DNA from: Dysidea avara
Taxonomy: Eukaryota; Porifera; Demospongiae; Dictyoceratida; Dysideidae
Length of the DNA: 64,000 bases
NCBI RefSeq assembly: GCF_963678975.1
Contig: NC_089275.1
Span: 14,043,682-14,107,681 of the forward strand
Reading direction: 5' to 3'
Both the position numbers and the translations under genes were made by a program. The notes below the pieces were generated by a model. The model was not told where the DNA came from and ran no database searches. It saw only the letters and a program-made list of their open reading frames with translations. Below are positions 20,402 to 64,000 of the stretch, one piece after another. Each line of letters opens with the position of its first letter. Position 1 is the stretch's first letter.

Positions 20402-23400
20402 CTGTGAAACATAATTGAAACATGTATAAATATTAGAAATCTATTTCACATACTTTCTAAAAATGTATCGTTTTAGACATTGCACTGTTTGCATTAATGT
20501 AAACAGCAATAGCTTGGCATTTATAACTAGAGTTTGGAAAATTTAGTGTATCAAGAAAATTTGCTGAATTTTATTTGTAAATTGGCTATATTGCTCAATG
20601 TTGGCTGCATAATTATAAAAATCACCCATTTTTATCTGCCACCCTGCTTCATGTGCTAATATACCAAACTTAAGTCACACCAAAACTTTTGTTGTTAACA
20701 GTATTTATTTACCTGAGGGTCTTTCTTGGGAAGTCGCAGCATGTCACCTTTGAGTGGTATCAAAAATACTCCACCATCAGTGATGGTCTCTACTGTTGCA
20801 CACGTGTTATTTCCAATCTCTTGTGTCAAGCCACTACCATCAACCACCAGCAGTTCTTGGTCGCCACCCCTCTCCAACCATCGGATATTATGTGTCACTT
20901 CTTCACAAGTACCGCCTTCTATGACTTCCACATCACCAGTATCAAGTGTTTCTTCCAGCCATGCTTCCAGGTTAGAATTGTCAACATTATATGGAAAAGC
21001 TTGAGTGCCAATGGTAGTGTACTGTGGTGAAGAGATTGTAAATTCACCTGCTACCCCAGATGTAGCACCAACAGTTCTTTGGACACTTATCAAGTCATCA
21101 TTACTAGCAGTGTAACTCAACAGTGGTATACCAACAGCACAGTAATGTACAGTGTATTCAACAGTATAGGTAAGATATCTTGTGACATAAGTGGATGAGT
21201 TGGAGATACTAAGTCCCTCATATACAATTAGATCTCTTTGTACCTCTACGTCATCGATATATATTCCATTGGGTCTAGCTGGAAGTTCTTTTACAATTAC
21301 TGTATAATTGTTTTACAATAAATAGACACTGTGATTATTTTTATGGTATAATCTTACTTTGATTAGTTCCCTGCTGAATTGAAACTTCATCCATCCACAA
21401 ATCACCAGGTGTAGCATCAAAAAATATTTGGTAAATAGTAAACTCAATCCCTACATTTGCAAAGTATCCACTGTCTTCTGTAAAGTACTCATAGAGATTG
21501 ATACAGTGATATCTCCAACTGTTGGGTGATGGTGGAAAATAATCCTCTGGTAGTGGCACATTTATACGATACAGTGGCCTTCTTCCATCTTGTAGCAAAG
21601 TGTATGTGTAGGTACTTAGACTTGAAGGTAGAGTTCCACGATAAGAAAAGCAAAACTAGAGTCACAGAAAAGTATGTGGTAATATTATGCAAGCACCAAT
21701 TATTTTATACAGCAGTTGGACTGTGTATGTGGATATGACATCGTACTATATTTTTGCTTGATATGGTATATACGTGTATGATCACCATCCATTTTTCACC
21801 TTTTGGTTTGCTTTGAATGCTAAGCAGCACCAACTGTTTATGCTAATAACCACATAGTGATTTTGTTTGCCATACATATTAACAGTGGCACGTCTAGACT
21901 CACTGGCTTGGTAGAACATTGAAGAACAAAAAAGGTAATGATCATCTGAAAATGGCTGCCCTCCACCAAAAAGTATTGATGAAGTACCTATAAATCCTTA
22001 TTTACAACTATGTAGTTTGCTACATTGTTTTTGTGCATACTGTGACTGGTTTATTAGAGTGATTGATTGCTCTATTAGAGCATTTCGATCTCACTTTTGG
22101 TGGGGCACCATAACTCTTTGGTAGGGCAAAGGCCCCACTAGACCCACCCATAGATATGCCACTGGAGTGGAATTAATACCAAATCACATGGTTTTAGGCA
22201 CCGGCCTATTATGCCCAAAATTTTACCTATTATGCTTTTGAGCATTGCTAAAAAATTAAGCCTATTATGCTCAAAATAATGCTATCAAAATCAAGATTAT
22301 GCTCTAGAACTGACTGTTTTATTAGAGTATATCAGCCTTTCCTGACTGCTCTATTAGAGTAAGTGACTGCTTTATTAGAGTATCTTGATCTTATTTCTGC
22401 AAAGTGTGAATAACCAACAAAGAAACGATTTAATAAGTTATATTACATGTTTTTAAATATGAAATGCACTAATAATACTATTGGCAGTGAATATTTGCTT
22501 TCTTTCAGACGCATGTATTGCGCATTTAATTAATTTTTCTAACATCGTCCCTATTTAATATGCTCAGGGGTGGATCCAGAGTTTGGAAAGAGGGGGGGGG
22601 GGGGGGCACCTTGCTGAAAAAAGTTGAAGAGCAAAAAAAAAAAAAAAAAAAAGGTCACAACAATAATAGCTAGTTATCCTTTACCAAATATATTCTATCA
22701 CGTATGTTATGTAAAATAAAATCCTTATTTATAGCTTCATACGTAGGTAAGCTACACTGCCTCATGAACATTGTGACTGCTTTATTAGAGTATCTTGATC
22801 TTGTATGCAATTTCTTGAGGGGAGGGGGGGGGGGGCATTTGCCCCAAATTCCCCATCCTGGATCCGCCATTGATGCTGGCATTATGCTTGATGCTTTTGG
22901 TCACCTATTATGCTTTAAATTATGCTGGCATAATCGGCCGGTGCCTACATGGTTTGTTCTGTTATTGCACAGTAAAGTTGCCAATTTAAAAACAAAATCA
23001 CAGAAGCTTTTCAAGTGCAAGAAAAGTGATATAATATATAGGCAATCAAATATACTGACAATAGAAACCTTTCAAGTGTAATGTTGATATTTTGAGTAGT
23101 CAATCAGATATTACTAAAGCCTTTTAAGTACAAAACAAATGATATATCAATTATTTAATCAGACCGAGAAGCCTTTTAAGTACTGGAAGATTTGATACAA
23201 TCACCTGTTAGAAGTTATGAGCCACACAGAACTGGATAGATGGGTACTACAAACCATGAAGGGTGATCACTTTGTGGTTAGTAGGCAATCACAGACACTT
23301 TCATGCAGTTAAGAAATAATTGTACTCATAACAGCCAAAATTGCACTCTGTGATGAATCCAAGTGAAATTTTGGCGCTGCTATGAGGCTCGGCAATGAAG

Positions 23401-26400
23401 CTGATAATATTATGTCTATACAGGAATTAGTATTGGTAATTACATTCATTTTGAAATAATTGTACTCCTAGCTGCCAAAATTTCACTATACTTTAAGCAA
23501 ACAATGGCAAAGATGTTTTTTCTGATAAGTGTGGAAGAACCTTTGCTAACCTGAGTAAGTGACCTTCCAAAATTCCCTTTAATAACAGTGCTGTTTTTAT
23601 TGCAAAACTTAGAAATTAGCTTGATGTACCCTCACTGCTTCATGCAATGTTGTAGGGTGGTGGAATATCTGCACACTTATTTCACTATGCTTACCCTCTG
23701 GAATATCTCCACAGGAACATCACCCACAGTTGTTCCTGTAATATCATTTACACTTGCATATCTTCTAAATATAAGAAAAGGGTCCTTTAATGCATATCGT
23801 CCACACTGTGGATCTATTGAATTATCAAGGGTACCCCAAATGGGACCAGTACTGCCATCATAACTGTGTGTCCAGTATATCTGACCAGCTGGAGATTTAG
23901 TACAAGTCACTGAGATTATATCATGGAGTTGGTCCTGTATAAAGTCATTGTCACTGTCTGGCAGTGAGATAGTCTCTGTATCTCTATGTGGTAAACCTAA
24001 TACTAAGTCGTCAGGGAAACGACCCATTTGGATTATGTTGATGGCAACAGTGATAAGTGATGAATCATAATCTCCAACTTCCAAGGTAGCAGTTCTCTGT
24101 ATTGACTCAAAGAACACAATTTGAAATGTAGTTTGATCATCAACAACACTCTTGGTCACTACAATGCTTGATATGTCAGCTCCATCAATGATAGCAGTAA
24201 CAGCTAAATCAAACAGACTTTCTGATGTGCTGGCAGTTAAGCTAGTTGATTCTGATGAACCATAACGTAGTGTAAATGATGAAGATGCAGATCCAGTGAT
24301 TGTAACATTCAGTATCATCGGTTCAATATACATGGTGACCACCTAACAAAAGAGATACAATTACTCTTATTGTTACCCACTGTCATGCTTAGATAGTTTA
24401 CATAATATGACTATGGTCCCTGGATGATCACATATTGTATGAAAGACATGTATTAACTGTACATAATTTTATGATTACAGCTATAATAGCTACATTGATG
24501 TAGTGCCACATGCCTTAGTATATAATTACCCCTCTAGGCCAGAAATCAAACATAAATATTATTGATGTCGCTCATAGATCATAATTTATGTCAATAAATT
24601 GTGTAACATTTCAGATGATGACTAACAATTGCTTAGCTTAAGTTTCTTGTGTACTCTTCAAGTAAAGTACTTCATACACAAGTTGCTTTTAGCAGTACAT
24701 TTTCACAGTAGACAAAATTGACTGGTTTTTTCTTACAGCTACATTTGATATTCAATTGCTCAAAGGTCGGATGGAATTCCATATCGATTTGTATATATAC
24801 AGTAAGCTAATGTTTTGGTATGCACCCGCATTAATCACTTTTTACAATCTACTGTACTAACAACAATGAACATCATTAGCTGTACATACTTCATGGTGAA
24901 TGAAAAGTGTCCACTATATACTGCCTGTATGCTTCAGCCACTTTACTGTATGTACGTGATGTGTTCTCACTTGTGTTTCTTTCTTAATCTCTGCTGATAA
25001 CACTATCCTTTGTTCTTCATGTTCTCCATACGCTTGACTGGAAGTCAGATTAGTATTGTGGTATTTAGCACCAAATCCAAGATCCCATGGGCCACCACCT
25101 TGAGTGTGTAAAACTTCCACATAGTATGGTTTACCGCCTTCTAGTTCAATTGGATCAGATATTTGAGTAGGAAAAAAATCGTAAAGACCCCTAGTATGTT
25201 GTCCTGCATGGACATTTAACTGAGCATGTTCAGCTGACATGTTAGAGCTGAGATAGAGTCTGCACAAGTCATCACATTTGATATAAATTGTGTAATTGCC
25301 ACTCCATGGAAATACAATAAATCCCACATATTTGGTGTTGAAATATGTGTCCTCCCCGAATTCTAGTGGCCGTTCGGAAGTTGCAAATGCAATCTCAGTG
25401 TTGCTCTCGTTCTTGGGTGAATTGTCCCTTGCAAATTCCCTAAATCTATCAAGGTTCCAATCGTGGTCATATAGTTGACGAAGTAGCCCTCGACCTCCTG
25501 CACAGAATAGTAATTTGGTAAATATAACACATTATCCCATAAAACTAACTTTTCACATTACCTGGATAATATGTATATTCTCCTAAGCTTGCACCAGTAA
25601 CACAAGTAATTTCTGTTGTGGTGATATTGTGAATATCACAAGGGACACCTAATTAAATAATATTGAGTGTGTAATAACTATAAGAAGTGATGTACATGTA
25701 TACAAGTTTTATACAGTGTGCTATGCATGGATATCAAAGAATAATGATTGAGGCACACTTGAGGAAGTCATACACTAGTAAAATGTTCTGAGTTAATGTA
25801 TACAGTGGAACCTCAGTTATCTGAATCCCACTAATCCGGATTCTCAGTTAACTGAACTACAGAAACAACTGCTCTATTAAAGTATTGACTGTTCTATTAG
25901 GGTAGTTGATAATACTGATTTTAAAAAATTCTTTAGCTACTTTAAGGTTGTTTATACACAGTTTCAGGGAAATGAACGTTTCAGCCTTGGTCCTAAAGGG
26001 TTTGGACAACTGAGGTTCCACTGTATTCATTCATAAAAATAATAGCAACCTTTCAAGTACAATCATTCATGCCATGGTATAGAATACAGTACTGCTACTA
26101 ACACGTAATCAACAGGTAAACAATTACAACTATTATGACATAACACTCAAGCTTGTCTTGTAATGCTGCTAACATCTGTCTGAATCGTAGCAAGATGAAA
26201 ATGTGCATGCAAATACTTAGCTATAGTTACGTAAATATAAATAAATGGAAAAACATTGAACACATAGAAAATTATCTCACCTCCTACCAACACTTCAATG
26301 TCAGTGGCATTAGGATCAAAGTACTCTCCAAAAATTGTGATGGTAGTTCCTCCATTGATACTACCCATATTGGGACTGACTCCTGTTATGTCTGCAAATA

Positions 26401-29400
26401 AACAAGAATTTGCAAATGATGTATAATTATAAAACTATTTCTTCTTAACCGTCCAATATTTACTTACCAGCATGTGTCTGATAAAGATACAGCCTCATAT
26501 TGGTGTCCAGAGAAAAATCCTCCAATTGAGTAATAGCACTACACAATATAGTGAATAGTAACATCAGTATTAACCATATATTACAGTTTGATAAAAGGAA
26601 GTTTAGAGGATAATTAAAATGTGGCTGGGGCTACACAAACTCAACATGTGGACACATAAAATTTGTTAATTCTTTCAAGACTCATAATTTATCATAGTTA
26701 CATGTATAGTAACATGACTAAAAAATTGTAATGCCTATGTAGCCTGGATAATCAAATTTAATATTGACTTTGTATTACAAACTACAGAATGAAGTTGTTC
26801 TATTCCAGTTTTTGAGATATACCTGTTGTGTGATGGAGTGAATTTTGTGTCCACATACCCAGTCATATTATATTTTGAATCAAGTGGAAGGTTTTTATGT
26901 ACAGTAGTTGTCAAATGTGTAGAATTTTAATTTCTAGGATATGTTATAAGCAATATAAAATTAATGTTCTGGAAAAAGGTTTGCACACTAACATACTTTT
27001 ATAAAATTAATACAACCTTTAGCTAATTAGGCTTTTGGGCATATGTGCATATAGCCAATAGTTAAAAAAAATTCTATAAAAACTTATTCATAAATCAACT
27101 ACCTTGTGTATATTACATACAGTACATTTATTTAGGTTGAGTATAAAGTGTAACTATTTTCTGTAACATGCTAAATAAGATATAAGGTAACTTGTTGAAT
27201 CCAGTCAATTGTGTACTATAAAAGTTTAATATTGTACTAGGGTAAGTGATGTTGACTAGGCCCAGTAACACGGAAATGGTGAACAGTCTAGACAAAGTTT
27301 TACTGCACGATATATGCCAGCATACAGAACATACCTCCCATAGCTTGGAACAATCAAAGTAGCATTCATGGAATCTATAATATAACAGGTGTATAAAGAA
27401 ATGTAATCAAGATCGGAATTGTCTACAGTTTTACAACTTATTATATTTTAAGTCACTGACCACCATATGATTGCACATAAGCAATATTATATATTACTGA
27501 ATGCTCTATTAGAGTTTAAATTTCACTGCTGTTCAAGAGTACATACTGCTAAGAGATGGCTATTTTATTAAAGTTCTTTGTTTTATTAGAATATGCTGAT
27601 ATTGGTGAGGTGATCATTCTGTGGGTCACTGAATAATTTTTGCTGCAAGCTTTATTTGTGCTTATTATTTTGCAGCAGCCATCCAAGATAAATAGCCCCA
27701 GAGAATCTCTATCATGTGTAATTTATAACTTCATTAATCTATCCAATTTGGGTAAACTATAATCTATTTGTGTGCTAGTCTATTTTACTATATAGTAGAT
27801 GATATTATTGGCTATTTGGAATTCCTCAAGAGTAGTACAATGAGCCAAGTACTTTTCTACTCAATTATGTGTTTTTCTAGTTTCATTTGCTACAGGCTGC
27901 TGCACGTACAGTTGATGTCACATCATAAAAGATATCTAAATAATCTTTGTGGTCTTCTTAACCCTTAGTATGTGCATGGTGCTGCTTCACTTTACTCATA
28001 TTCCACAAGTTTGGGTCTTGGCATTGCTTAGTGTTGGTGACAGTACAATAATGCTGTGGTGTTCCGGTTCCCAGAATCTTGCTGCAATAAGATACCTTTC
28101 TTTTTTGTCAATGTATTATTTAGTCTCATTGGCATACATATGTACTGTATCCTTTTTGATGGGAAAGGAGAAAGACTACATGAAATAGGAATATATAGGC
28201 CTGAGTCAATCATGCTCAAAATTTTGCCCAAAATGCTTTCAGGAATTTCTCCACTTATAATGCTCTTCGGTGCTCCCATTATGCTCCTAGGCTAGCAACA
28301 TTTCTAACAATTATGTTGTAACATTCAATCAGTGAATACTCTATTAGAGTATTTCACTACAAAGTGACTGTTCTATTAGAGAGTGTAGATCTAAGGAGCT
28401 ATGAACAATGCATTTGAGTGCTCCATTGCAGTTTGCAGTTTCCACTGACTGCTCTAATAGGAACCATCTATCTATTTCAGGGAATTAAGTTCCATGGTTT
28501 AAAATATTCACCCTACAGTATATGCTAACATTATGTTGGCATATTTGACATAGGCCTAGTAGGACTATACCACACCTCCATAGGACAACTACAATAACCA
28601 ATAATTTATAGCATTGGCCTTGATCATTTCAACTTATATGGACTGGTTTAATTCAAACTAGTACAACTCACCTTTAGTCTGAATTATTACATGTCCTCTA
28701 GTCAATTACTATAGGGCTACTCTACAGAACATTATTGCCTAAGTTAAAATTTTAGCTTAATGAAAGAGCATAAATCCATGTACATTTTTAGTAGATAGAT
28801 GGAATTTTAAACATGCTATTTAAATCACCAAAGTACATGATCCATTTTATACTGCACACTAATAATATCAGAACCAATGAACTAACCAATTCTATTTCCA
28901 GTCATTGGTACACAGCCAACCATACCAGTGGTACCAGAAAGGCTATTTTCATACCTGCAAAATCAAAACAGACTTTAGCAAACAACAAAATTTAATTATT
29001 TCCATAATATGTTATAGTAAGGCTAATAATTCTGTATGTTCTATTAGAGTACTTTATGTGTACTCAGTTTGTAACACTGGGTTTTTGCTATTTTCAAATT
29101 CAGAAGAGATTTTTATTAAATATCGTTTTTAAATCACTGCAAGGTTGTAACTAGAGTATTTACTAAGAGAGTAACAACTTACGATTCTCCAGTGTCAGGA
29201 TCAATTGGATCACATACTTGATCTCCAATAAACATCCTATAATAATTATAATATAAAAGGTGGTCATATGTACAATTTTATGACCAGATTACAGCACATA
29301 TGTGCCACAGTACCAGGTTTAGGCCCAAGTAAAATGTGCTCAAAATTTTGCCTAAAATGCTTTCAGGAAAAATTCCCAAATTTTTCACCTATTGTGCTTT

Positions 29401-32400
29401 TGAGGTGCTCCCATTCTGCTTGCATTAAGCTATATAGGTTGGCCAACATTTCTTACAATTGTCTTGGAACACTTTGCTTTCTATTACAATATTCTACCAC
29501 AAGGTGACTGTTCTATTAGAGATTATCAATCTAGTAAATGTAGTTTGCTGCTGGCATAGCACTCCAGCCTATTACGCTATCTATTATGCTGGCATATTTG
29601 ACACAGGCCTAACCAGATTATTAGGTGATGAAATCCTATACTTTCATGTTTTTTTTTATAAAATACAGGGGTGTAGTTGCTCACAAAAGATAGTTTATTT
29701 TGACGACCCTAACTGAGCAAGATTAGTAGGATATTATGATAAGTTTTCCAGGAGTAAGCTAAAGAGTTAAGAGGTTGAGCTATGTGAAGTTTGAAGCATA
29801 CAGTACCATTCTACAGGTCTGGGGGCATGAAAAAGTTTCAGATCTTTAACACCCTGAGATATGATTTTTACTGTGTTGGACCAGGTAAACTAAGTAAGGG
29901 TCAAAAACAACAAAATGTCACTGTACTATTACTATTAGAGTGTTTCGATCTTGTTCTAAGACTGTGGTTGAATATTATCTGAGAAAATTTTGATAGCTAT
30001 TTACCTTACAAAGTGCATCCTTTGTAAAGCATACAAAAAATTAGCCTATCCAAAGCCTATTTGATGGTAAAGTGCATTAGGGTAATACTGTTATCAGAAG
30101 AATTGTGACTGTTCTATTAGAGTATATTGATCTTAGCACAAAAATTCAGACTCATTTGCCTCACAATGTAGTTTATAACTATAAGCATTTTCTTCTGGCT
30201 TTCTGTACTTCTAAATACAGAATGAATGCATGATTCCTAATTCTGGTGTCAATATAATCTGTAAGTATGGGGGGCAAGACAAGAGCCAGGGACTTTGGCC
30301 CCACTTGGCCGTCACACAGATCCACCTATGCCACATAGAGTAATATTATGTATAATAAACGCATCCAACTTATATGTTATCAGAACAATAATAGCAGTTT
30401 AGGGCATCAGACTTTATTATGCAGTCTTTAATAATTATAAGTATATTAGCAATTCAACTTTGCTGCTATTATATTAAGTAACATGTAAATTCACCTGGTA
30501 ATAAGGTCCTCCTCATCAGGATCATCAACATTATCTGTGTATGTCCTTCCAGTGAGATATACCAGTGATCCTGTATAGCAAAATGTCAACATAATGTGTC
30601 GATAAAGCATGAACAGTAATAGAAAACAAACATCAATATACTTTAGTACAGCAAAATTCACCAAAAAGTGTGACTACAAAAAGTGCATAAATTTTCTCCA
30701 GTGTAGCTAGCTATGCACATATGTGACCGGATTTGACAAAACCAGGCTTCCACACACATCCAATTCTTCGACTTTAATCACTTGTAACGTTCCCAGTCAG
30801 CAAGCTATTGACCTAACATTTTCACACAATTCTCTCATCGCAATGTGCAATAACAGGTCAAAAGTTGAAAGTGATAGCTTATTCTTACATTGAGTTATAG
30901 TTCTTTGGAGTCACAAAGCTGGATGTGTGTGGAAGCCTGGTTTTGTCAAATCCGGTCACATATATATATATACTCGGTTGTTCACTAGAGTTTATATTAT
31001 GTCATCATGGATTCTACAGTTATACATGTATAGATTTTTACCAGAGTAACCCATGTTTTCAAACCATCACCGTCTCACCCTCCCATAAGTTAAAAGTGCG
31101 CTTAAACATGTGGTACTGCATAGGATATACTGCACTGCATTTATAAACAGATATAAATGGACAGCAGGGACGCATAGAATAATTTCCAGAAAATTGAGGT
31201 TGTAAGAACAATTCTTGAATAATAGGACGATTTTCAGAAATATGTAATTAAAGCTCAAAAGTTACTATCCTGTTTGCAGTATGCTATATGAATTCCCTTA
31301 GAGATTCCCCCAAAACACTGCTAGCATAAAAGCAGTATAAAAGATCTAATAGAGCATTCACTTACCCTAATAAAGTAGTCACAAAAATATTGGTAGTAAA
31401 CTGACTACTCTATTAGAGTATCACAATCTTTTAAGATATAATTTGCAACCGGATTTGTGAAAAGGGGTCTTTCACACACATCCAATTCACCAACTTTGAC
31501 AATTCATAACATTGTATTAGAAAAGGCTATTGACCTAAAATGTGGTCTGTATAGTGAGCACTAACTTACCTTAACTGATGGTCATGCTTATGTATGCCCT
31601 GAACTAACACTAAGTTATGGTTATCCAATTTCATAAATTGGAAGTGTGTGAGAGACCCATTATTGCAAATCTGGTGCTTACTATGCTAGTAATTGCCTCT
31701 ACAGTCATAGAATTAAACAAATGTATTTAACTGCATTTCAGGAATCATTATTAGGGAATAACTGCAGGAATAATATGGGTAAAGGAAAAAAATTAATAGA
31801 AAACACAACAGGAAGATTTAAAAGCCTATTTCACAGTAACTTCCTCCTAGTTCACAGTATACATATGTTTTCCACATGAGTTATACACTGCATTTTGTAC
31901 CATGTACTGTATATCATATTGATGGTATATAATTACACAATAGTGAACTCCTCACATGCAAAGTCACACATACCTGGGGTGCCAGCATGAGGAAAGACAT
32001 ATTCGATCATTGGGGTTCTGTCATCACGATACTATAAGACAATAATAATATTATTATTATTATAACAAGCAAATGTGAATTAGCTCTTAGATGTACACAG
32101 TGCATTCATGGCAGGGGCAGATCCAGGAGCTAGCAAGGGGAGGGGCACAAACAGGCTAAGTTGTAGGTGGTTGGGGAGAGCCAGATTCTCTTGTTAGTTC
32201 CTACATTGCAGCAAATAATCACCTCATAGTAGTATCTCACTGTTGATTATTTTAGCCATTTTGGCTTTTGTAGATGGTTGTGAAGTCTTAAAAGCTGTTT
32301 AGCTAAAAGGCTGTGAATGTCTTAAATAGCAACAACACAATTATTTTAGAGACGCTTAGTTTGAATGAAGGTGCTGGGTGACAGTTTAACAGCTAGTTTG

Positions 32401-35400
32401 ACTTTGATTCGCTTTAGTTTCAGGTGAATTTGTAATAATGCTAGTACAATGTGCTTATTTTCATGATGAGTTTTATAAACTGATCTTGGCCTGATAAAGT
32501 TTAGTATTTTAATCAGAAGTATGGCTGGCTCCTCCACAAGGGATGGAGGGGGGGGGGGGGGGGGGGGCATTTGCCCCAAATGCCCCATCCTGGATCCGCC
32601 ATTGCATGGTTTACATAAAATGGGTTTTAAAATAATTATAATTAATCTGTAGTGTGTGTTATTACTCACATCAAAGAAGCAACCACCACAGTAACTTCCT
32701 CCAAGTTCAGTAACAGTTTTACCATCAATAATTATAGTGAGTGTGTAACGTTCTCGGTCTACATCAGTAGGGGATGGACTACATAGCAAAATAACAGTGA
32801 CTTAGAAAGGAAATCAGATTGAGTCACTACAATGTACATTAATAGTATACATTGATGGAAACTCTGCCTAATAAGTGTCGGAACATAACAAAAGTTATCT
32901 ATAATGATCCTTGAATACAGATTTCTCTAGTAACCCTATAAAAATGCAGCCTTCCATTTATAGTAAACAACAAATGCATGGATTAACTACAAATGCATGG
33001 ATTAACTACAAATGCATGGATTTGATCACAAAATGTAATGATCATGGCATAACCCATTTTAACAGCACCGTAAAAGGCAAGTCCTACAAAAAACCATAAT
33101 AGTTAGTTAGAGAGACACAATATGTGCTATCTTAATGTAGATTGTGTATATAAATTTAAGAACATACATATATATACACCACATACCCAGTATCACACAC
33201 TATTTGTTCAGTGGTAGTGTAGTAGGTATACACTAGACATTCTACTCTGTTGTCACCATTAGTAAAGTAGACACGATTACCCTTGGTAGGATCATCATAA
33301 CTGTATTGGTCAGGACTAAATCCTATTGTTGGAAGGACACATAGCTAAAATTTTAAACATAACAATAGTAGTAGTAGTAGTATAGACATAATAGTACAAG
33401 AAACAAAGGAGGAACAGGGTCTAAATTGATGAAAGTTACATTGCCAGGATAAGATGGTGTAGTAGTACTAAAACTGAGACATGCTTAATGCACTCGTATA
33501 TAGTATATAGGGCACAGAAGCACAAAGCATACAGAATTATTATATTGTGGGAATATAAGTATTGTACAGTATTATGCTACACAAAGTATAGGACTGGTAT
33601 GTATTTTTAAATACAGTTTTAAGCTGCATAATAATTTTAAATGTTGTTAAGTTATGCTGACTTGTCAGACTTAATTTGTGCCCGGGTCTGCAAAAATAGG
33701 GCATGTGGGCACATGATTTTAGCCTACTTTTTCAAAGTCTTGTCACTCATATCTTTTTGTACCATTATGCTATGGCACTGCAATTTTGAGCTCTTAGTCA
33801 GCATTTAATTGGCATCATGATGCAGGTTACAAAATGAAAATATACTTATTATCATTATTACTGTGTAAACCTCATGCAGAGTATACAACACAGATAATCA
33901 TACAAATGAGTGCCATAACAAATAGTGTGCTAGTTTATCTTTAAATTCATCTAAATTGTTGATCATTGCCAGTGACTCGGGGAGATTATTCCACATCTTG
34001 GTAGTTGAGGGTAGGTATGAACGTGCAAAGGTTTCAGTTCTGATGGAAGGGATGGTATAGCAGCAGGAATGACCTCGTGTGACTGAATCCAATGGTGTCA
34101 AGCTTATAGTGGTTTTGACAAGAGCCTTCTCACTTTTGTAAAACAAGACATAAAGCACTAGCATGCTTTTTATCATTTATTGCCAGTTGTTTTATAAGAG
34201 TCATTCATTCATTATCTGAAAACTGCAAGAGCAAATTCAGTAAACACACCTATTATCACCATTTTTCATGGATAAATGTGATCGAGCTTGCAAAAACAGA
34301 GCATGTGGGCAAACACTACACCCTGTCACTCTACAGGTGATATTTGAGTACTCACAATTACTAAACAACTAGGTACCTCTTCCAGTGATAGTTATTCTTG
34401 TTCCACCTCCAAAACCACCAGTCCGAGGACTAACTGAGTACACTCCTGTACAGTAAATAATTATTTAATATTATATACGTAACTATTAGACATAGCTTAG
34501 CATGTGTACTACAATTAACTGCATGGATATATGTGTACAGTAAATACTCCATGTACAATACAACATCACAAGTTCTGATTTATTTGATTAGTCACTATCT
34601 CACTAGGGATCTGCATGAAGGCTATCAAATGGGCTTGCACCAAATATGCTGGCATACTTTCAAGCATGATAGGCTTGCAAAGGCATCAAGTATCAATACA
34701 CTAGTGCATTTTATATCAAGAAAATTTGCAATGTTATTATTTTATTGTTTTATTTACTCTTTGTTAAGATATACTTTAATAGATCAGCCACTTACTCTAA
34801 TACAGCAGTCAGGAAAGCTGATATACTCTAATAAAACAACCAACTCTAGAGTATAATTTTGATTTTGGAAGCATAATTTTAAGCATAAAAGGCTGGATTT
34901 TTTAGCCTCAAAAGCATAATTGGCTATTTTCAAAGCATGATTGATACTACTAAAAGCCTGTGTAGCAAGGAGCCAGAAATATGTTATTAATGAACGCAGA
35001 AAAATCCCAGACCAGGTGGTGACTTGATCCACAGACAGCTTGCAGTCTAGGCAAGTGCCTGAGGAGCCACATAACATGGGATCCAGTATTCCATCTGCAT
35101 TCAACCATTATACTTAAAGGACATTGAATTATGTGCCAAGTACACGCCATTGTCAAAAAAGTTATTATTAAATATCTCACTAGGTGGTTCTGTTCCTTCA
35201 GTATTATCATCTTGATCTGGTACCACAGATGGTGAGCTCAGTGCAGCTACATACATAAATAAGAGTCATATGTTTTGTCTGATACTATATGGGAAAGATG
35301 ATCAGGTAAAGATGATCAGACAGTGAATTAGTATAGCAAACTTTTAGAGGGCTATGATTATGCCAAAAGTATTTTTGATGAAAAACAAAATGCAAACCAA

Positions 35401-42700: not shown

Positions 42701-45700
42701 GAAAGTATTAGTCCTATATGACCTCCACCAGGTGCTAGCATGGGAGAGAATGATTTAGGATGAGACATTACTTCTGGAATAATGTTATCATCTTCCATTG
42801 TTAAGTATGGACTAGCACCAACAATGATGGTGTTATTAATTCTCACTTGCTTAGTTGATTCCTGATGTGTTAGAGAACTTGGAGAATACACATTTAAGAA
42901 AATGGCAGCCTTATTATCAATTAAGACATTGTTTTGCATGTAAACTCCTGATCGGCTGTATGTGAATATTCCATAGTGATAACAACTGTAAATGGTGAAG
43001 TGACTTAGCTGTAAGCATTGGGGCAGCCCATCAGAATATGGAACATGTATTCCATGTAATGTGGAATGGGCAACATTTCCTTCCCATCGAGGAGTACCAT
43101 TAGCTACAGGAGAATCACATGGCTCACCATCAACATGGAAACCAACTTTCCCACCACCTGCAGCTGCATTTCCAATTAGGACTAAGTTAGTAGTACCAAT
43201 GAGCTCAAAATTAGGAGTCCATTCAATATTCTGAGAATCATCAATGCCACGATATGTTCCAGGAAATAAGGCTACAGTTGCCATTGTCTTTTCCAGTGTA
43301 TGGCCTGATCCTTGTAAAATCACTGAAGGACCAACAGTACTATGAATGACATTATCAGAGATCAATACATTGTCTGATCCAAACACACCAATGCCAGAGT
43401 TGTAGCCATCATGAACACTGCTTCTTCTAATGTATGTGATTTCAGCATCAGCTGCACTAGTTCTAGTGTTGAGTATGGCAAATGAATAACGTGGATCAGA
43501 TGAGTCTGAGTGTCCTTCCTGTCCACAATTAATGATCTCTACACCATCTATCTGAGCACTTCCAACATTTCTTACTGAGAAAGCATTTGTATAGGAACCA
43601 ATGAGTATTCTGCATCCAAATGCTTGGTTATCAGTTGTGACAAAATCTCCACTTCGTATTTTGATATTTCTTGTCAAGAGACCTACTTCAGCTCTCTGTA
43701 TGAACGTGTGATCATCTATTGTTGTCTCTTCACCAAGATGTTTATACTGTAGGCTACTACTGAGTGTTATAGTGTTGCCCGATATAGCAAGAATTTGAAA
43801 TTTTTCTGTGTGTAACATTTCATAAGAAGTTGATGCTATTACTATCTCTTCTCCTACTCTCCAGTCTGGAGTGTCAACTACTTCTATAGTGTTAGAGCCT
43901 GGAAGTACTGTCTGTGCTAAATGTGTCCAAATGACAAGTCTTTCTTGACCATGGAGAATCAATTGGCCAAACACTCCAATAGCCTTTGCTCCAAGGATGG
44001 GCCCAGTGGATGGTAGAATGAATTCTAATGAGGTTTGAGTTCCATGTAAAATAAAAGTGGCCATATTTTGGAATGGACGTGTTGGCCAGCCAGCAACTAA
44101 TCTTCCTCCATCAATCAGTATATTATCTGCTTCAATTGTATGATTGAGTGAGTCTAGCAGTTCCAGTCCACCACATATTGTAATATTTTTGAGCCTCGGA
44201 ATTATTATGTCAACTATAACATACAGTGTACAGTTAATGTGAACACTATCACCTTCTTGAGGGAGCTGTCCTCCTTCCCAGATTGAAACATTTGACCAGT
44301 TATGTGTAACAGCGGGAACACCAGGAGGAAGAGTTGGTGGTGGAGTTGGTGGAATGCAATTTTCGTAAAAGCAGCGGAATGTTCTGAAGGTAATAGTAAA
44401 CTGAGCTCTACCAGGTCGACCTTTTACCAAATAAGTCAGAACATTAGATTCATCAATGTACCAATCTCCTGTACTGTGCATAGAAGGATCTGGCTTTGCA
44501 TCAGTTGCGTTTTGTTCAACTCCATTAAAGACAACCCCATCCACTTGCTGTGAGTAATTGCGGCTAATCCAAAAGTACTCATTTTCTTCTAATCCAGAAA
44601 TGATCATGTTGTAGGAAATATTTGCCAATTGTCCACCATCATCCCATTTTATAACATACTCATGTCCCTTAGGAATTATAGCCATGTAACCAGATGGACC
44701 TGTAAGCCTTGTTATCACATAGTCTAAATCAGTAGTTCCATATTCATTAGTCAGAAATATTGTCCTGGTTGATATAGATGATGGTGTCACACTGTTTAAG
44801 GCTATTCTTACAAAATCAACTGTGGCATCACAAACACTGCTGTTGATTTCTGAGTTGCTGCTGGCCTCATTTAGAGTACAACTATCATGTGGAAGTACAC
44901 CACTATAAGGGACTAGTGAACCATTAATAATACCAAGCAAAGAGCCATCTAAATCTCTATGTACATGTTCATAGTTCCACTGCCATCCTGAAAGATTTGG
45001 AGAATCTATGTATGTAATTTTTTCATATCTTGTTAGATAACCACCTTGAAAGACTCTACAGTGTGAACATGCCAGAATAGCTGAACAGCCTTGTCTATCA
45101 AAATTGACAAAAGTTACATTTGAGACTGTTAAATAGTATGAACGTGGTGCCCTGAAACCGGACACAGTACAGAAATCAGGATCATCTGAGTTTAGGTCAC
45201 TGTGGCCAACAATGAGTACATCTTTAACTAGTGGTCCTCTCTCACCCCATTCTCCGGTATTGTCTGTTATTTCCACACCAGCAAGTTCATTGTCTAACAT
45301 TGTGGAATTGCGCACTTGTAATGCTCCGACTTTCTCATGGAATTCAACTCCTCGGTTGTTCTTCCATGCTAACAATCTGTTAAAGATGGCAGGTTGGTCT
45401 GCCCCACCATTGCATGCACCATTTACTTTAGGGAAGTACGTTTGAAACACCCACAAACCATACCAGCCCATTGAGTGTGCACTGTTATCATCAAATTCCC
45501 CTAGAGGGACATTTTGTGGGCATATTGTATCAGTGAATGATGGACCACTAGGATGCCTCTCTAATCGATACCAGAAACCGAAATGGCTACCACCAGCAGC
45601 TGCATTTCTTCTTACAGTATTGTTTGGGTTGACAACCCAGAAAGTAGCAGGTGTTACATCAACATTAAGTAAACTACTGGAACCTCTCACAAACACACCA

Positions 45701-48700
45701 AGGTTATCTTGAATGATCGTACCAACCTCTACTCCATCTTCTAAAAAGTAAGCATGTCCCATTACATTGTAAGCAACATTCTTTTCAACCAACAAATTGT
45801 TGACAGCATGGATGGTAACAGCTCTGTTGAAAGTGTGGTGGATACCACATCCCCTCACGTATGATCCAGTAACATCTCCATTGAGATGGAAATGTATTGG
45901 ATATCGACCAAGTCTGAATGCTTGTCCAGCATGAGTTACCTCAACATATTCAATTCTTCCAGTTATTAAATGTTGATCCATCACTGGTGCATGTAACATG
46001 ATTTGGCCTCCAAACTGGTCACTTCCTGTTTCTTCTCCAAACCGTCCTTGGAAACAGGTCTGCACATCAAATTGACCAGGCCTGAACTCTTCTGGACATG
46101 CTGGTATTGTAGTTACCCATTCTTCAATCCTGTTACCTCTGAAAACGACATTTCTGGTCAAGTAACCTACTTCAGCACTAGTGTCAATGTACTGTCCAGC
46201 TATTGTTTGTTTAACTGACAAGTGTTGGTATTTCAATGGAGGATCAATACTTAACATAGTCCTTGACCCATCAATAGCAGTGATTTTCACTTCTTCATTT
46301 TCTCTTTGACTATAGCTAGTTGATGCTATGACAATCTTTCCACCAACTTCCCATGGTACAGCTTCTTGTAAAGTAATCATCGTATCTCCAGGATTTGCAG
46401 TAACGTCAAGTTTAGTCCATGTTACATCAAGTGGAATTCCATGCAGGTCCAGTGTTCCATGACGAACAGCTAATGTCTTAGCACCATATATTGGTAACTC
46501 AGTGGACAAAACATGACCATAAAGGACTATTTCTGCTTTATGGGTAAAAGGTTCATCTTCTGTTCCCACTTGTAAAGCTCCATTGTCTGTGATTAGAACA
46601 AACTGAGTATGCAAACTGACATCTTGAGTATCAAGGAACATCACAGTTCCTCCTTGAATGAGAAGAAATGACAAGACAGGAGTATGTACATCAAGTGCTA
46701 AAGTCTGTCCTCTCGGCACAACTACAAAATCACCTTCCACTGGAGGTGATTCCCCTCCCCAAGTGTATGTAGAACTCCACAAATCCACATAGAAAAATGT
46801 TAGTCCTCCAGATTCAGCAAAGTTTCCTTCAATATCAACTAGTACTTCAGCCTTGACAGTTCTGCCAATGGCACCAGTTTGGCAGGTAATGGTTGTGTCA
46901 TTCATGGAAATTAAGGAACATTCTACCCCACTAATAGTGACTTTACAGCTAGATGAAAATCCACTGCCTGTTATTGTTAAAGTAGTTCCTCCAGCTGTTC
47001 CTCCCATTAGTGGATAGATGCTGGTCACTTGTGGTGTCAAGTTGTTCATGTAGGTATACCCATCTTGTATTACATAACTAGTTCCCATAGTGGTCACGAT
47101 AACATCACAGACTATATCTGATCCAGGGTAGGTATAACTTGGTACTTCACAATTTAACATGGTTAAACTAGGAGGATCATTAGTAGGAGTACAGGATTGA
47201 TTGCAGATGGTGACAAAAGTGGAAGCTGGTTCAAATCCCACACCGAAAATAGTAAGAGTATTTTTGCCAGCAAAACTTCCTTGCATTGGTGACACTGTGG
47301 AGACCCTTAGCATATACACAAAGTCAACATCTCCCACAGCAAATCCTATGTCAGTTACCAAGACATTAACCTTATAAGATCCAGTAAGTGCTGGTCCCAA
47401 GGTGCAATTAATCTCTGTTGTAGATGCATCAAAGATAGCACATTCAGCACCTCCAATAGTGACCACATTATCTGAAGAAATAGTAGCAAACAAATCTCCA
47501 GTAATAGTTACATTGTCTCCATCTTGACCTGATGTAGGACTGATGGAAGTGATTTGTGGAGAGTTACCCTGTGTACTGTAATTGTATGTAGCAGTAGGAA
47601 AGACCACATCATTGACAGTAATTGTTACAGTGTTATATCTGTCTCGTCTTGAAGGAGCAATACAGTAAACCACAGAGTAATTACTATACACAACTCGACA
47701 ATCTCGTTCACCAATGAACACAGTAACATTTGATGGCTCACTGGAAAATCCACTACCCATGATTACTATGGTATTACCACCCTCAACACTACCAGTGGAT
47801 GGATCAAGTGATGTCAGTTGAGCCACACTTGTTACTCTAGGAGATGTAGTGAACATGGCTTCACCAGAAGACGTGGTAACTCTTAAAGTGTAAACTCCAG
47901 CTGGAATAGGATAAAGTGTACAAATGATAGACAAGTTAGATATTTCTATCATATCACAAGGGTAGTATCCAACTGTCACATTATATGGTGAAAGAGGCAA
48001 GAAATTATCAAATGTTAGTGTTAAATTGATGGGAGTATCACCATAAAATCTTGCTGGGTCTACTGAGGAGATAGTTGGTGTGGCTGACAAGTTGTAACTG
48101 AAGTAACACGAGGATAGTCTACACTTAGCTTCTAACCCATTAGTAGTTGCCACTAACTCAGCCTGAAATTCATCTTGTGAACCTGAAAATGCTGGAATTG
48201 TGCAGATAATGTTGTTGTAGTCAAATGACAGTATATCACATTCATTGTCATTTATGTCCACTGTTGTGGTATTGAGAAATCCTGAGCCTGTGATTGAAAG
48301 TTTTTGGCCACCTTGAATAGATCCAGCTTTGGGAGTGTAGTCATCAATGAATGCACAAAAAGTGATTGTCTTATCAGTTTCATTATTTATTGCAATAAGA
48401 GCATACCCACAACCGAACACTGAGACCTCAACTGACAGTGGTTCATTGATAGGCACAGTAGCAGCATCTTCTATAATACAGTTGATTGAGAAGAATGTCA
48501 CATCAACTATAGTACAGTCATAATCTCCTATCTTCACTGTGTTGAGTTCTGGAACATCTGAAAATCCTTTCCCAGTGATGGTGATTGTATCTTGTATGGT
48601 AGCATATAGAGGGGCTATGGCAGTAACTATTGGAGTGGCACAAGTAAGGTATGCAAATGTAACAACTTCAGGAAATGATGCTCCTTCACAAGGTGGTGAT

Positions 48701-50277
48701 CCTGATCCTGACGATACTGACCTTTCATCTCGATCATCCATGATGTAATGTTCTGCATAATAATCTCCGATCATTACTGTTACTGGGAAGGTAAGCTCAG
48801 TTACTTCTTCAACAATGATTTCACCTCTAAGTTGTGTGAAACCATCAAAATTGCTGGCATAGAAATATACACCAGACTTTGAAAAAGTATATGCAAAACT
48901 TCCATCTTTCATACGACTAGTTCTGAATCCTTGACCATCATAGACACTGGAGCCACTGGCAACCTGGAATAGGTCAAGAGAAATTCCACCACTCCATGTC
49001 CACTCGACAGTATCTCCTGCTTGTAGTACAACAACTGATGGGTCCCAGACTAAAGTGGAATTTATCACTGCAACTTGTACAGTAACAGTCTTGGAAGTAC
49101 TGCCAGTAATACACTCTATGCTAGTTGTGTTAGCAGCAGTAACATTACATGGAATGTCACCGATTGTGACATTAATTTCAGATAATTCGGTAGTAAAACC
49201 ATCTCCATTTATGGCGATTAATGTGCATCCAAGAAGTGAGCCAACTGCAGGGTATACTGCATAAACTTGAAGCTGATAAGATACAGGAGGATATAAGAAT
49301 TCTGAACCATTAGCAACAGCAGCTTCTTGAACTGCAAAACCGATTCCATGAACAAGCGCAAAAACTGGATAAGTATTTGGTTCATGTGGTGGTGCTATGC
49401 AATTAATAGCAAGATTGCTGTATGCCACTACCTCACAATCCATTCCATTTATTACGACACTAACATCTGATTCATTCACCCATTCAGATCCGGCACCAGA
49501 TTCCAAACCAGCAAATCCTGATCCACTTATAGTGATGGTAGTCTCTGTATGTACAGGTAGTTGATAAGGTGTAATACCAGTTATTACAGGAGTAGCTGTA
49601 GTTGAATACTCAAAGCCATTTTCAATGACAGCTATTGTGCCATTCACATTAATAGTAATATTAACCAAACCTTCTGGATGAGGACCACTCATGCAAGTAA
49701 CATGTGTATTATTTGACTTGACAATGACACAGATGATGTCATCAAGCCAGATAGCAAAGTCATAATAGTGATGATGATGATGATAATAATAAAAGCAAGG
49801 TGCATCTGAATCATTGAAATGGCTGATAGTAAATTCACAAAATAGTTCAGTAAAATTTCGTTCATCCACATCAGGAAATCCCTCACCTTGTATAGTGACT
49901 AGTGTACCTCCTCCTATACTACCACTATCATAGTCATACACACCATCAATAGTTAAGGTGTACTCAAATGTAACATTACTCATTGCAAGACCTTTAGACT
50001 CAATCATGACATATACATCATATGTACCAACTGTGTTTGCACCAGCCATGCATGAAATAAAACTATCATCAGCTTCCAGTATGTAACAAGGAGCATCACC
50101 TATTGTCACACTTGTGACATTTGGAGTAAAATCACTACCAGTAATATTAACAATAGTTCCAGATTGACCAATGGTTGGAACAATGAAATCTACAGTTGGG
50201 GTCATGTTGGCAGAGAAAATGAAACTACAGTTATCATTTTTACAAGATGATGGGATTCTGTTGATTATCACCTCAAC
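39742..50277 (-). CDS. Gene B terminal exon (10.5 kb): IPT cluster, two G8, beta-helix, membrane anchor
   Basis: 10,536 nt, 3,511 codons plus TAG. Same domain order as gene A exon 21; G8 domains begin near 46800 and 44300. Differences include a tyrosine/histidine tract (YYYHHHHHYY) coded near 49766-49795, and a C-terminal tail 15 residues longer (YYNE followed by ALVDDKLGPLANEDD). The membrane helix (ELIIIIAAAGGVILLLLVCL) lies at about 40065-39985. The RKRQ site lies near 41455. Close to gene A, most strongly around the first G8/beta-helix region. Confidence 0.97.
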   Translation of the reverse strand, partial: VEVIINRIPSSCKNDNCSFIFSANMTPTVDFIVPTIGQSGTIVNITGSDFTPNVTSVTIGDAPCYILEADDSFISCMAGANTVGTYDVYVMIESKGLAMSNVTFEYTLTIDGVYDYDSGSIGGGTLVTIQGEGFPDVDERNFTELFCEFTISHFNDSDAPCFYYYHHHHHYYDFAIWLDDIICVIVKSNNTHVTCMSGPHPEGLVNITINVNGTIAVIENGFEYSTTATPVITGITPYQLPVHTETTITISGSGFAGLESGAGSEWVNESDVSVVINGMDCEVVAYSNLAINCIAPPHEPNTYPVFALVHGIGFAVQEAAVANGSEFLYPPVSYQLQVYAVYPAVGSLLGCTLIAINGDGFTTELSEINVTIGDIPCNVTAANTTSIECITGSTSKTVTVQVAVINSTLVWDPSVVVLQAGDTVEWTWSGGISLDLFQVASGSSVYDGQGFRTSRMKDGSFAYTFSKSGVYFYASNFDGFTQLRGEIIVEEVTELTFPVTVMIGDYYAEHYIMDDRDERSVSSGSGSPPCEGASFPEVVTFAYLTCATPIVTAIAPLYATIQDTITITGKGFSDVPELNTVKIGDYDCTIVDVTFFSINCIIEDAATVPINEPLSVEVSVFGCGYALIAINNETDKTITFCAFIDDYTPKAGSIQGGQKLSITGSGFLNTTTVDINDNECDILSFDYNNIICTIPAFSGSQDEFQAELVATTNGLEAKCRLSSCYFSYNLSATPTISSVDPARFYGDTPINLTLTFDNFLPLSPYNVTVGYYPCDMIEISNLSIICTLYPIPAGVYTLRVTTSSGEAMFTTSPRVTSVAQLTSLDPSTGSVEGGNTIVIMGSGFSSEPSNVTVFIGERDCRVVYSNYSVVYCIAPSRRDRYNTVTITVNDVVFPTATYNYSTQGNSPQITSISPTSGQDGDNVTITGDLFATISSDNVVTIGGAECAIFDASTTEINCTLGPALTGSYKVNVLVTDIGFAVGDVDFVYMLRVSTVSPMQGSFAGKNTLTIFGVGFEPASTFVTICNQSCTPTNDPPSLTMLNCEVPSYTYPGSDIVCDVIVTTMGTSYVIQDGYTYMNNLTPQVTSIYPLMGGTAGGTTLTITGSGFSSSCKVTISGVECSLISMNDTTITCQTGAIGRTVKAEVLVDIEGNFAESGGLTFFYVDLWSSTYTWGGESPPVEGDFVVVPRGQTLALDVHTPVLSFLLIQGGTVMFLDTQDVSLHTQFVLITDNGALQVGTEDEPFTHKAEIVLYGHVLSTELPIYGAKTLAVRHGTLDLHGIPLDVTWTKLDVTANPGDTMITLQEAVPWEVGGKIVIASTSYSQRENEEVKITAIDGSRTMLSIDPPLKYQHLSVKQTIAGQYIDTSAEVGYLTRNVVFRGNRIEEWVTTIPACPEEFRPGQFDVQTCFQGRFGEETGSDQFGGQIMLHAPVMDQHLITGRIEYVEVTHAGQAFRLGRYPIHFHLNGDVTGSYVRGCGIHHTFNRAVTIHAVNNLLVEKNVAYNVMGHAYFLEDGVEVGTIIQDNLGVFVRGSSSLLNVDVTPATFWVVNPNNTVRRNAAAGGSHFGFWYRLERHPSGPSFTDTICPQNVPLGEFDDNSAHSMGWYGLWVFQTYFPKVNGACNGGADQPAIFNRLLAWKNNRGVEFHEKVGALQVRNSTMLDNELAGVEITDNTGEWGERGPLVKDVLIVGHSDLNSDDPDFCTVSGFRAPRSYYLTVSNVTFVNFDRQGCSAILACSHCRVFQGGYLTRYEKITYIDSPNLSGWQWNYEHVHRDLDGSLLGIINGSLVPYSGVLPHDSCTLNEASSNSEINSSVCDATVDFVRIALNSVTPSSISTRTIFLTNEYGTTDLDYVITRLTGPSGYMAIIPKGHEYVIKWDDGGQLANISYNMIISGLEENEYFWISRNYSQQVDGVVFNGVEQNATDAKPDPSMHSTGDWYIDESNVLTYLVKGRPGRAQFTITFRTFRCFYENCIPPTPPPTLPPGVPAVTHNWSNVSIWEGGQLPQEGDSVHINCTLYVIVDIIIPRLKNITICGGLELLDSLNHTIEADNILIDGGRLVAGWPTRPFQNMATFILHGTQTSLEFILPSTGPILGAKAIGVFGQLILHGQERLVIWTHLAQTVLPGSNTIEVVDTPDWRVGEEIVIASTSYEMLHTEKFQILAISGNTITLSSSLQYKHLGEETTIDDHTFIQRAEVGLLTRNIKIRSGDFVTTDNQAFGCRILIGSYTNAFSVRNVGSAQIDGVEIINCGQEGHSDSSDPRYSFAILNTRTSAADAEITYIRRSSVHDGYNSGIGVFGSDNVLISDNVIHSTVGPSVILQGSGHTLEKTMATVALFPGTYRGIDDSQNIEWTPNFELIGTTNLVLIGNAAAGGGKVGFHVDGEPCDSPVANGTPRWEGNVAHSTLHGIHVPYSDGLPQCLQLSHFTIYSCYHYGIFTYSRSGVYMQNNVLIDNKAAIFLNVYSPSSLTHQESTKQVRINNTIIVGASPYLTMEDDNIIPEVMSHPKSFSPMLAPGGGHIGLILSSFLSGPGHFPKSSWPSITSYPAISGLTTLDGVSFINFGVRGSVRDTAFVSNPISEDCQHPTYVCNTKLINVDSDSLYRNHIPNLGSVNPSDCVDLDCDAQKHILIKDMDGSLLNSGPDGTIISQAEFEWDGDSRRGLGNYRIPRVLTADPSNGLPIQPDDLFPLKGIVRGNRSESSCTWMSQWNAYSCSGLDHLMFIFESLDEDTEVRRLSPFALAANGYIDLLNGPQDHGWCGGYTCQERISTFYGLIAPGLDYEIALSSTNPQNMRFHLLYAEENDTIRIAFLYTNPQRLDVYYGDTYVNPTNVEVDGNGELIYKSRDPSLPFDQFLPTLDDLAGSNFYERSVKRLYFILRGNTPITVRTAPVIQLAINLPPVTVDEFFEMNLISNLATLLGIDESRIRVVNVISEASNRKRQVEGTSVEIEIGNPPETSIDNENGTATNETTTTDPNALDFDSLENVTSMVAEVIQTGQLEKMLNVSILSADVQPPVAPPVDPTGGVRATPDTGGPQPGEVENGTLTFGDRQNASESDDTGPITLAIPSELRLLSQPVNGIEGLSLTPTPILAVYDNNGEVVTNLGIGDPWVASISVTSTGQSSVQLVPSMQVIFTGGYADLTYVSISHPGFGYVLAFTITDPPVGFMAQTVPFDVSEREMVINIFQGSQTGSTALELSPYPIVELLDKGILEKVTNLGWRGRRWFAKLELKTASGSSTGLEWTAEFNSNDATASFSDVLIRNPGKYIMEFTAFTNPDSDISVSGAEYSIKITVFPSARMGFVLDADFDTVVGNDATLFITSVESDLSNILSDVTIYNISVARGSIVVNFYVQSENRQDVTNAISTFTSADIEIEYNGQTYIAINKTAQFVSETDGSDDDGLSTELIIIIAAAGGVILLLLVCLLIFICYRCYKRQNSKVSKIHVTASKEPHDNTNKYEIRQINWQASSGHTEENEYITRSSMMSFNERPEQEYYNEALVDDKLGPLANEDD

Positions 50278-63769: not shown

Positions 63770-64000
63770 CTGTAGGTAATTAAAATATAGACACAGACAC
63801 ATATGTATTATTTTATACAATAGTAAGTAGTAGGGATCACCAGATTTAACATTTTCTACTATAACATCCAACTGCAAATATTAAATATTCTTTAAGTGAA
63901 GCCTGCTCTCTCTCAAAGTAACAATATGCATGGTCACTTTGAATTTCAACAGGTCCATGTATAGATGTTGAGTTCCAATTTACATAATAAATTAATTTGC

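What the first reader, a model, noticed from the sequence alone, without database searches (positions are those of the whole stretch)
34377..38712. Predicted CAP (SCP/TAPS) domain fused to the N-terminus of a fibrocystin-L-like membrane protein
Seen: a signal peptide, a full CAP domain (tetrad His70, Glu88, Glu112, His131; both CAP signatures), a CRISP-type cysteine hinge and an acidic linker, in five exons that splice in matching phase into the first IPT exon of the PKHD1L1-like body. The joined frame is 14,097 nt with no stop. Known: vertebrate PKHD1L1 begins with its own signal peptide followed directly by IPT, with no CAP. No other signal-peptide exon is visible between 34446 and 35180. 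Inference: a secreted-type CAP module, known from sterol-binding and extracellular signalling proteins, is displayed at the tip of a huge surface-coat protein, which I do not recall being described.
Basis: partly seen in the sequence, partly recalled or inferred. Interest (0 to 1): 0.88.

Follow-up and report, generated by a model that had tools for sequence, protein, structure and literature searches.

The report
CAP head on giant surface-coat protein
A small secreted-type domain called CAP appears to sit at the outer tip of a giant animal cell-surface protein related to the coat protein of our hearing hair cells; gene models of two worms show the same join, so it looks real and either very old or made more than once.

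Summary
On the minus strand, 21 exons (38712 to 9911) join into one 14,097-nt frame: signal peptide, complete CAP domain with His70/Glu88/Glu112/His131, four-cysteine hinge, acidic linker, then a fibrocystin-L body and a transmembrane segment.

The strongest new evidence is comparative. Of 85 proteins found with the first 560 residues, two annelid models, Owenia fusiformis and Dimorphilus gyrociliatus, have signal peptide, CAP and first IPT domain in the same order; in 51 the first IPT lies within 60 residues of the start. The junction intron shows no usable signal-peptide exon, and the only CpG-rich patch between 34 and 40 kb lies at CAP exon 1. One fused gene is far likelier than two neighbours, but no transcript was available.

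The combination is thus not unique to this genome; it was not found in print. One origin or several is unresolved. What the CAP head binds is inference. A tandem copy upstream runs off the window, so whether it has a CAP is unknown.

The parts
38566..38712 (-). exon 1: signal peptide and start of CAP domain (ends in phase 0)
   Evidence: hydropathy; a like exon-1 ORF on another contig (P0164, 43 of 57 aligned columns identical, 8 of the 57 being gaps)
36258..36512 (-). exon 2: CAP core with His70, Glu88, Glu112, His131 and start of first CAP signature
36013..36122 (-). exon 3: CAP core, rest of first signature and start of second
35640..35728 (-). exon 4: end of CAP and four-cysteine hinge
35181..35246 (-). 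exon 5: acidic linker; donor CTA|GTGAGA
34446..35180 (-). junction intron 5; holds a repeat (34702-34923) that recurs at 22226-22471 inside intron 18 of the same gene
34377..34445 (-). exon 6: start of the first IPT domain of the fibrocystin-L body
9911..33322 (-). exons 7-21: remainder of the fibrocystin-L-like protein (IPT repeats, PA14, two G8, CEMIP beta-helix, transmembrane run from residue 4605); exon 21 alone is 10,491 nt
38101..39200 (.). CpG-rich patch at the 5' end of CAP exon 1, likely promoter (inference)
39745..63774 (-). tandem upstream paralogue (gene A), 81% identical over the big exon; 5' end lies beyond the window

Best explanation
One gene encodes a CAP-headed fibrocystin-L. 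Transcription starts at about 38.7-39.2 kb; a 21-exon mRNA gives a single-pass membrane protein whose only signal peptide is that of the CAP exon. The mature protein would expose a CAP domain, joined by a short cysteine hinge and acidic linker, at the end farthest from the membrane, on top of IPT, PA14, G8 and beta-helix modules. Shown by sequence: joint open frame, splice signals, domain order, same order in two annelid models. Inferred: expression, start site, location on cell-surface projections (from mouse PKHD1L1), and the role of the CAP head as a ligand-, lipid- or matrix-contacting tip.
For: Joint 14,097-nt frame, all 20 introns GT-AG. CAP profile complete, E 2.2e-19. Owenia P0003: CAP 26-152 in Pfam, first IPT from about 174; Dimorphilus P0007: CAP 35-158, first IPT from about 208; both also hold TIG, G8, CEMIP beta-helix and PA14. 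In both, the stretch between CAP and IPT shows no second signal-peptide-like run, judged by eye (sequences). With site models trained on the body introns only, the exon 6 acceptor scores in the top 0.45% of 1,121 AGs and the exon 5 donor in the top 5.2% of 1,151 GTs of the region. No one-exon signal peptide in intron 5. Of 636 overlapping 400-base windows, 14 reach CpG o/e 0.8; the five of these between 34 and 40 kb lie at 38201-39200. Annelid annotations used RNA-seq (passages).
Against: No transcript, read coverage or close-relative genome could be checked. If exon 5 is read through, a stop follows at about 35103, and AATAAA lies at 34754, 34746 and 34584, so a separate CAP end is not excluded; the first two lie in a repeat. 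Some CAP splice sites are weak: the exon 4 acceptor is matched or beaten by 37% of AGs, though body exons 7, 19 and 20 are weaker still. One CpG patch (50601-51100) lies inside gene A, between exons, so such a patch need not mark a gene start. Only 2 of 85 hits carry CAP, and a search with the Owenia N-terminus among proteins of like length returned only Owenia of 142 candidates, so the architecture is rare or the search insensitive.
Confidence: 0.91

Rival explanations
1. Two neighbouring genes: a small secreted CAP protein (exons 1-5, ending within 35180-34700) and a fibrocystin-L whose own signal-peptide exon was missed.
For: CAP proteins of small size are common: 84 hits of 122-381 aa, and 8 of the 8 stand-alone rows aligned have the cysteine hinge. 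Read-through of exon 5 meets a stop after a short tail and AATAAA motifs follow.
Against: No phase-compatible one-exon signal peptide between 34446 and 35180; no CpG patch near exon 6; two of the three AATAAA motifs lie in a repeat also found inside intron 18; same fused order in two annelid models.
Confidence: 0.06
2. Both products are made: a full-length CAP-fibrocystin-L and a short secreted CAP through polyadenylation inside intron 5. (This overlaps with the best explanation and does not compete with the fusion.)
For: Stop at about 35103 and AATAAA motifs in intron 5.
Against: AATAAA occurs 47 times on this strand of the 64-kb window, about 0.5 expected in 735 bases against 3 seen, and two of the three lie in a repeat. 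No transcript data.
Confidence: 0.1
3. The fusion is real but arose independently here and in annelids, by repeated capture of a CAP module in front of the first IPT domain. (A question of history, given the fusion.)
For: Patchy spread: 2 of 85 hits have CAP, while 51 start directly with IPT. Rotifer homologues carry fibronectin type II (precomputed Pfam; P0054 scanned), with an N-terminal copy seen by eye, so this position accepts modules. Dimorphilus CAP does not group with the others in the free tree, and one origin appears in 0% of 200 bootstrap trees. Owenia lacks the hinge.
Against: Window and Owenia CAP are sisters at 90/72. The tree with all three held together had a log-likelihood 3.09 higher than the free one; p-AU 0.552. 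Long branches and an unsettled bootstrap (correlation 0.944) make all of this weak.
Confidence: 0.5

Closest known systems
PKHD1L1 / fibrocystin-L (vertebrate hair-cell stereocilia coat protein)
   Same: IPT repeats, PA14, two G8, beta-helix, one transmembrane run near the C-terminus; the first IPT aligns with the first IPT of vertebrate fibrocystin-L models
   Different: Extra CAP domain, hinge and linker between signal peptide and first IPT; the tail after the transmembrane run is about 70 residues, against 8 in mouse (PMC6707252, one section read)
Owenia fusiformis 4,925-aa protein (P0003) and Dimorphilus gyrociliatus DgyrCDS5681 (P0007)
   Same: Signal peptide, CAP, then fibrocystin-L body
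   Different: Owenia lacks the cysteine hinge and does not match the second recalled CAP signature; Dimorphilus has the hinge but matches neither signature
GLIPR1 / GLIPR1-like / PI16 secreted CAP proteins
   Same: CAP core and hinge; best solved relative is Glioma pathogenesis-related protein 1 (3q2r, E 6.9e-40); Haliotis GLIPR1-like protein 49% identical over 80%
   Different: The named ones are small proteins, 232-298 aa where length is listed under these names, not part of a giant membrane protein
Perisilins of glass sponges (CAP-related silica proteins)
   Same: CAP domain; perisilin-6 41% identical over 93%
   Different: Stand-alone proteins associated with silica (PMC10772126, abstract start and passages seen)

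Membership tests
CAP superfamily (PF00188) | complete CAP profile above the curated cut-off | tested here: met
   70.9 bits against 21.1, positions 1-117 of 117
CAP superfamily (PF00188) | His/Glu/Glu/His tetrad and two signature motifs | tested here: met
   H70, E88, E112, H131; both recalled patterns match
CRISP proper | C-terminal Crisp domain (PF08562) after the hinge | tested here: not met
   Only CAP, TIG and PA14 found in the first 1,202 residues at E up to 0.01; hinge cysteines only
Fibrocystin-L / PKHD1L1 | IPT repeats, G8 pair, CEMIP-type beta-helix, PA14 | tested here: met
   In one search the best TIG stretch is at 451-508; that exon 6 starts the first IPT rests on alignment to relatives
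Fibrocystin-L / PKHD1L1 | single transmembrane segment near the C-terminus | tested here: met
   hydrophobic run from residue 4605 of 4698, seen by eye; no predictor was run
Fibrocystin-L / PKHD1L1 | signal peptide followed directly by first IPT | tested here: not met
   222 residues precede the first IPT. This is the variant feature; 51 of 85 relatives have it, 2 of 85 have CAP instead, so I do not treat it as required for membership
Fibrocystin-L / PKHD1L1 | presence in a surface coat of cell projections | not testable with these tools
   needs localisation in the animal
Sterol-binding CAP proteins (Pry1/CRISP2 type) | binds sterol | not testable with these tools
   needs a binding assay

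The most novel reading that the evidence does not exclude
The fibrocystin-L of early animals already bore a CAP head, which this lineage and some annelids keep and most others, vertebrates included, have lost; the hearing coat protein would then be a stripped-down form of an older CAP-tipped surface protein.
Probability: 0.3. Interest if true: 0.68.

Novelty: new variant of a known kind. Interest (0 to 1): 0.56.

Why it matters
[quoted passage not shown] A natural form with a compact, assayable domain at that end gives a handle: what the CAP head binds may say what the tip of the protein family meets. It would also be a case of a domain gained or lost at one fixed spot in a giant surface protein across distant animals.

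Tried and rejected
Gene-merge artefact: tested by phase, splice scores, signal-peptide scan, CpG profile and homologues; judged unlikely.

Identification of the organism: not achieved. A sponge is my guess from the look of the sequence and from sponge CAP proteins among the hits (perisilin-6 and Dysidea avara); no call names it. The whole genome could not be read.

CAP in the upstream paralogue: could not be tested, since its 5' exons lie beyond 64000. P0164, a 122-aa ORF on a 466,709-base ENA contig that matches CAP exon 1 (43 of 57 columns, 8 gaps), could be that exon or a relative's; undecided. P0158 and P0099 match exon 2 (39 of 59 and 61 of 89 identical); their context is unknown.

Single origin by tree: inconclusive. 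Of 87 possible rows (84 hits plus the three fused CAPs) 76 went in. Left out: five fragments or single-exon ORFs (P0099, P0158, P0160, P0164, P0165), five isoforms or copies from a species already present (P0091, P0122, P0124, P0125, P0148), and P0169, under 150 aa. The CAP rows were found with the window's own CAP, so close stand-alone relatives of the annelid CAPs may be missing.

Fibrocystin body (gene A main exon) in genome contigs and viral contigs: 11 and 2 pattern matches, none a relative. Structure prediction was not tried: the spliced protein is not readable in one frame of the window, and the annelid proteins exceed the length limit.

Literature: PKHD1L1 with CAP domain 0 papers; fibrocystin with CAP domain 0; fibrocystin with SCP domain 0; fibrocystin-L with sponge 2, listing only; further listings, of which I saw titles and abstract starts for those shown. 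The library lacks most subscription journals.

Full report
Observation. I rebuilt the gene from the minus strand by homology and splice sites, choosing exons by eye and joining them in a script. Twenty-one exons from 38712 to 9911 join into 14,097 nt, 4,698 aa and a final stop, with GT-AG at all 20 introns. The first five exons hold a signal peptide, a CAP domain, a hinge with cysteines 186, 189, 195 and 200, and an acidic linker; exon 6 begins the first IPT domain. Pfam finds CAP at residues 31-168 over the full profile, E 2.2e-19, then TIG and PA14; the large last exon adds 11 TIG, two G8 and two CEMIP beta-helix stretches. Pfam's best TIG stretch in the first 1,202 residues is 451-508, so the start of the first IPT at residue 223 rests on alignment to relatives. 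The tetrad is H70, E88, E112, H131. Among solved structures the nearest by sequence is Glioma pathogenesis-related protein 1, 3q2r, E 6.9e-40.

Is it one gene? Four lines say so, of unequal weight. First, exon 6 joins only to a phase-1 donor: exons 6 and 7 read together are open in that phase and carry stops in the other two. Exon 5 supplies it, which by itself would happen by chance about once in three. With site models trained on the body introns, the donor of exon 5 scores among the top 5.2% of 1,151 GTs in the region, the acceptor of exon 6 among the top 0.45% of 1,121 AGs; the exon 4 acceptor is weak (37%), as are some body acceptors. Second, the 735-base intron between them holds 21 ATG-to-GT segments of the right phase, none with a strong hydrophobic core (best 1.78, against 3.27 for exon 1). 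A signal split over two exons was not scanned. Over 39740-34446, 2 of 80 segments passed, both from one ATG at 36587 and both running through CAP exon 2. Third, CpG is depleted across the window (median o/e 0.19), and 14 of 636 overlapping 400-base windows reach 0.8, in three places: 6.1-7.1 kb, 38.2-39.2 kb and 50.6-51.1 kb. The middle one sits at CAP exon 1; there is none near exon 6. The third lies inside gene A, between exons, so such patches are not sure marks of a gene start. That a CpG patch marks a promoter is inference from other methylated animal genomes (recalled). Fourth, relatives.

Relatives. A search with residues 1-560 of the full protein, which admits only proteins of like length, returned 85 proteins. 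Two carry CAP before the first IPT: Owenia fusiformis P0003 (CAP aligned 22-166, IPT from about 174) and Dimorphilus gyrociliatus P0007 (CAP 38-192, IPT from about 208); Pfam confirms CAP plus TIG, G8, CEMIP beta-helix and PA14 in both. In 51 of 85 the first IPT begins within 60 residues of the N-terminus; two of these start at the IPT itself (P0039, P0058), and some are not animal, such as the green alga P0074. In 11 of 85 the extension is 61-300 residues: the two annelids, five rotifer or rotifer-like models with a fibronectin type II domain in their precomputed Pfam lists, and four others (P0017, P0046, P0072, P0073) without a CAP match. The remaining 23 gave no usable N-terminal alignment. 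Both annelid annotations were built with RNA-seq, and the Owenia paper reports RNA support for 31,678 of 31,903 transcripts (PMC9977687 and PMC7854359, passages seen). I did not see the reads for these two genes. A further search with the Owenia N-terminus found only Owenia among 142 candidates. A recent review states that putative fibrocystin-L orthologues reach from green algae to vertebrates and takes PKHD1L1 as the ancestral member of its family (PMC13424714, abstract and section 4 read).

Against. No transcript of this gene was available. Reading through exon 5 gives a stop at about 35103, and AATAAA occurs at 34754, 34746 and 34584. The first two lie in a repeat, 34702-34923, which has a 77% identical copy at 22226-22471 inside intron 18 of the same gene, so they are poor evidence for a gene end. 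The third does not.

One origin or several? The tree with the three held together had a higher likelihood than the free one, p-AU 0.552. So neither view is shown. Convergence is helped by the rotifer case, where another module stands at the same end. I give convergence about even odds.

How it may work. The CAP exon's signal peptide is the only one found, so the CAP head would be the outermost part of a single-pass protein with its transmembrane run from residue 4605. In mice PKHD1L1 is a stereocilia coat protein needed for hearing (PMC6707252; abstract and one results section read). By analogy the head would face the environment or a neighbouring surface. The intact tetrad allows metal binding here; Dimorphilus matches neither recalled signature and by eye keeps only one of the four tetrad residues, the second Glu. 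A role as a contact or ligand-binding tip is thus more general than a metal-dependent one. All of this paragraph beyond sequence is inference. CAP-related proteins are reported from silica of glass sponges and from spicules of a calcareous sponge (PMC10772126 and PMC12419799, passages seen), which makes a matrix-contact role thinkable.

Known or new? The parts are well known; the join is present in public protein sets but was not found in print. I therefore call it a new variant of a known kind.

Noticed in passing
39745-50325 and 9911-20440, minus strand: Two tandem fibrocystin-L genes, 81% identical over the main exon. In both, some 10.5 kb is one open frame while the 5' part is split by many introns, as if introns were lost before the duplication (inference).
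   Followed up: partly
P0047, P0054, P0055, P0057, P0060: Rotifer or rotifer-like fibrocystin-L models list fibronectin type II (PF00040); by eye a copy stands before the first IPT: a second kind of module at the same end.
   Followed up: partly
window, 24 places: Short dispersed motif CTCTAATAGAGCAGTCA, 24 matches with up to 2 mismatches against 0.01 expected, 19 of 24 on the minus strand; by position 20 of 24 lie between exons of the two genes.
   Followed up: partly
1-956 and 4021-6078: Minisatellites: a 30-base unit (31.9 copies) and a 31-base unit with higher-order 61- and 122-base periods.
   Followed up: no
6101-7100: Strongest CpG-rich patch of the window (o/e up to 1.22); the ORF at 6288-6830 under it has no Pfam match at E 0.01. 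Possibly the promoter of a next gene.
   Followed up: partly
50601-51100: A smaller CpG-rich patch (o/e up to 0.91) inside gene A, between exons; unexplained.
   Followed up: no
P0164, P0158, P0099: ORFs on unnamed contigs 66-75% identical to single CAP exons of this gene; they may be orthologues or the upstream paralogue's own CAP exons.
   Followed up: partly
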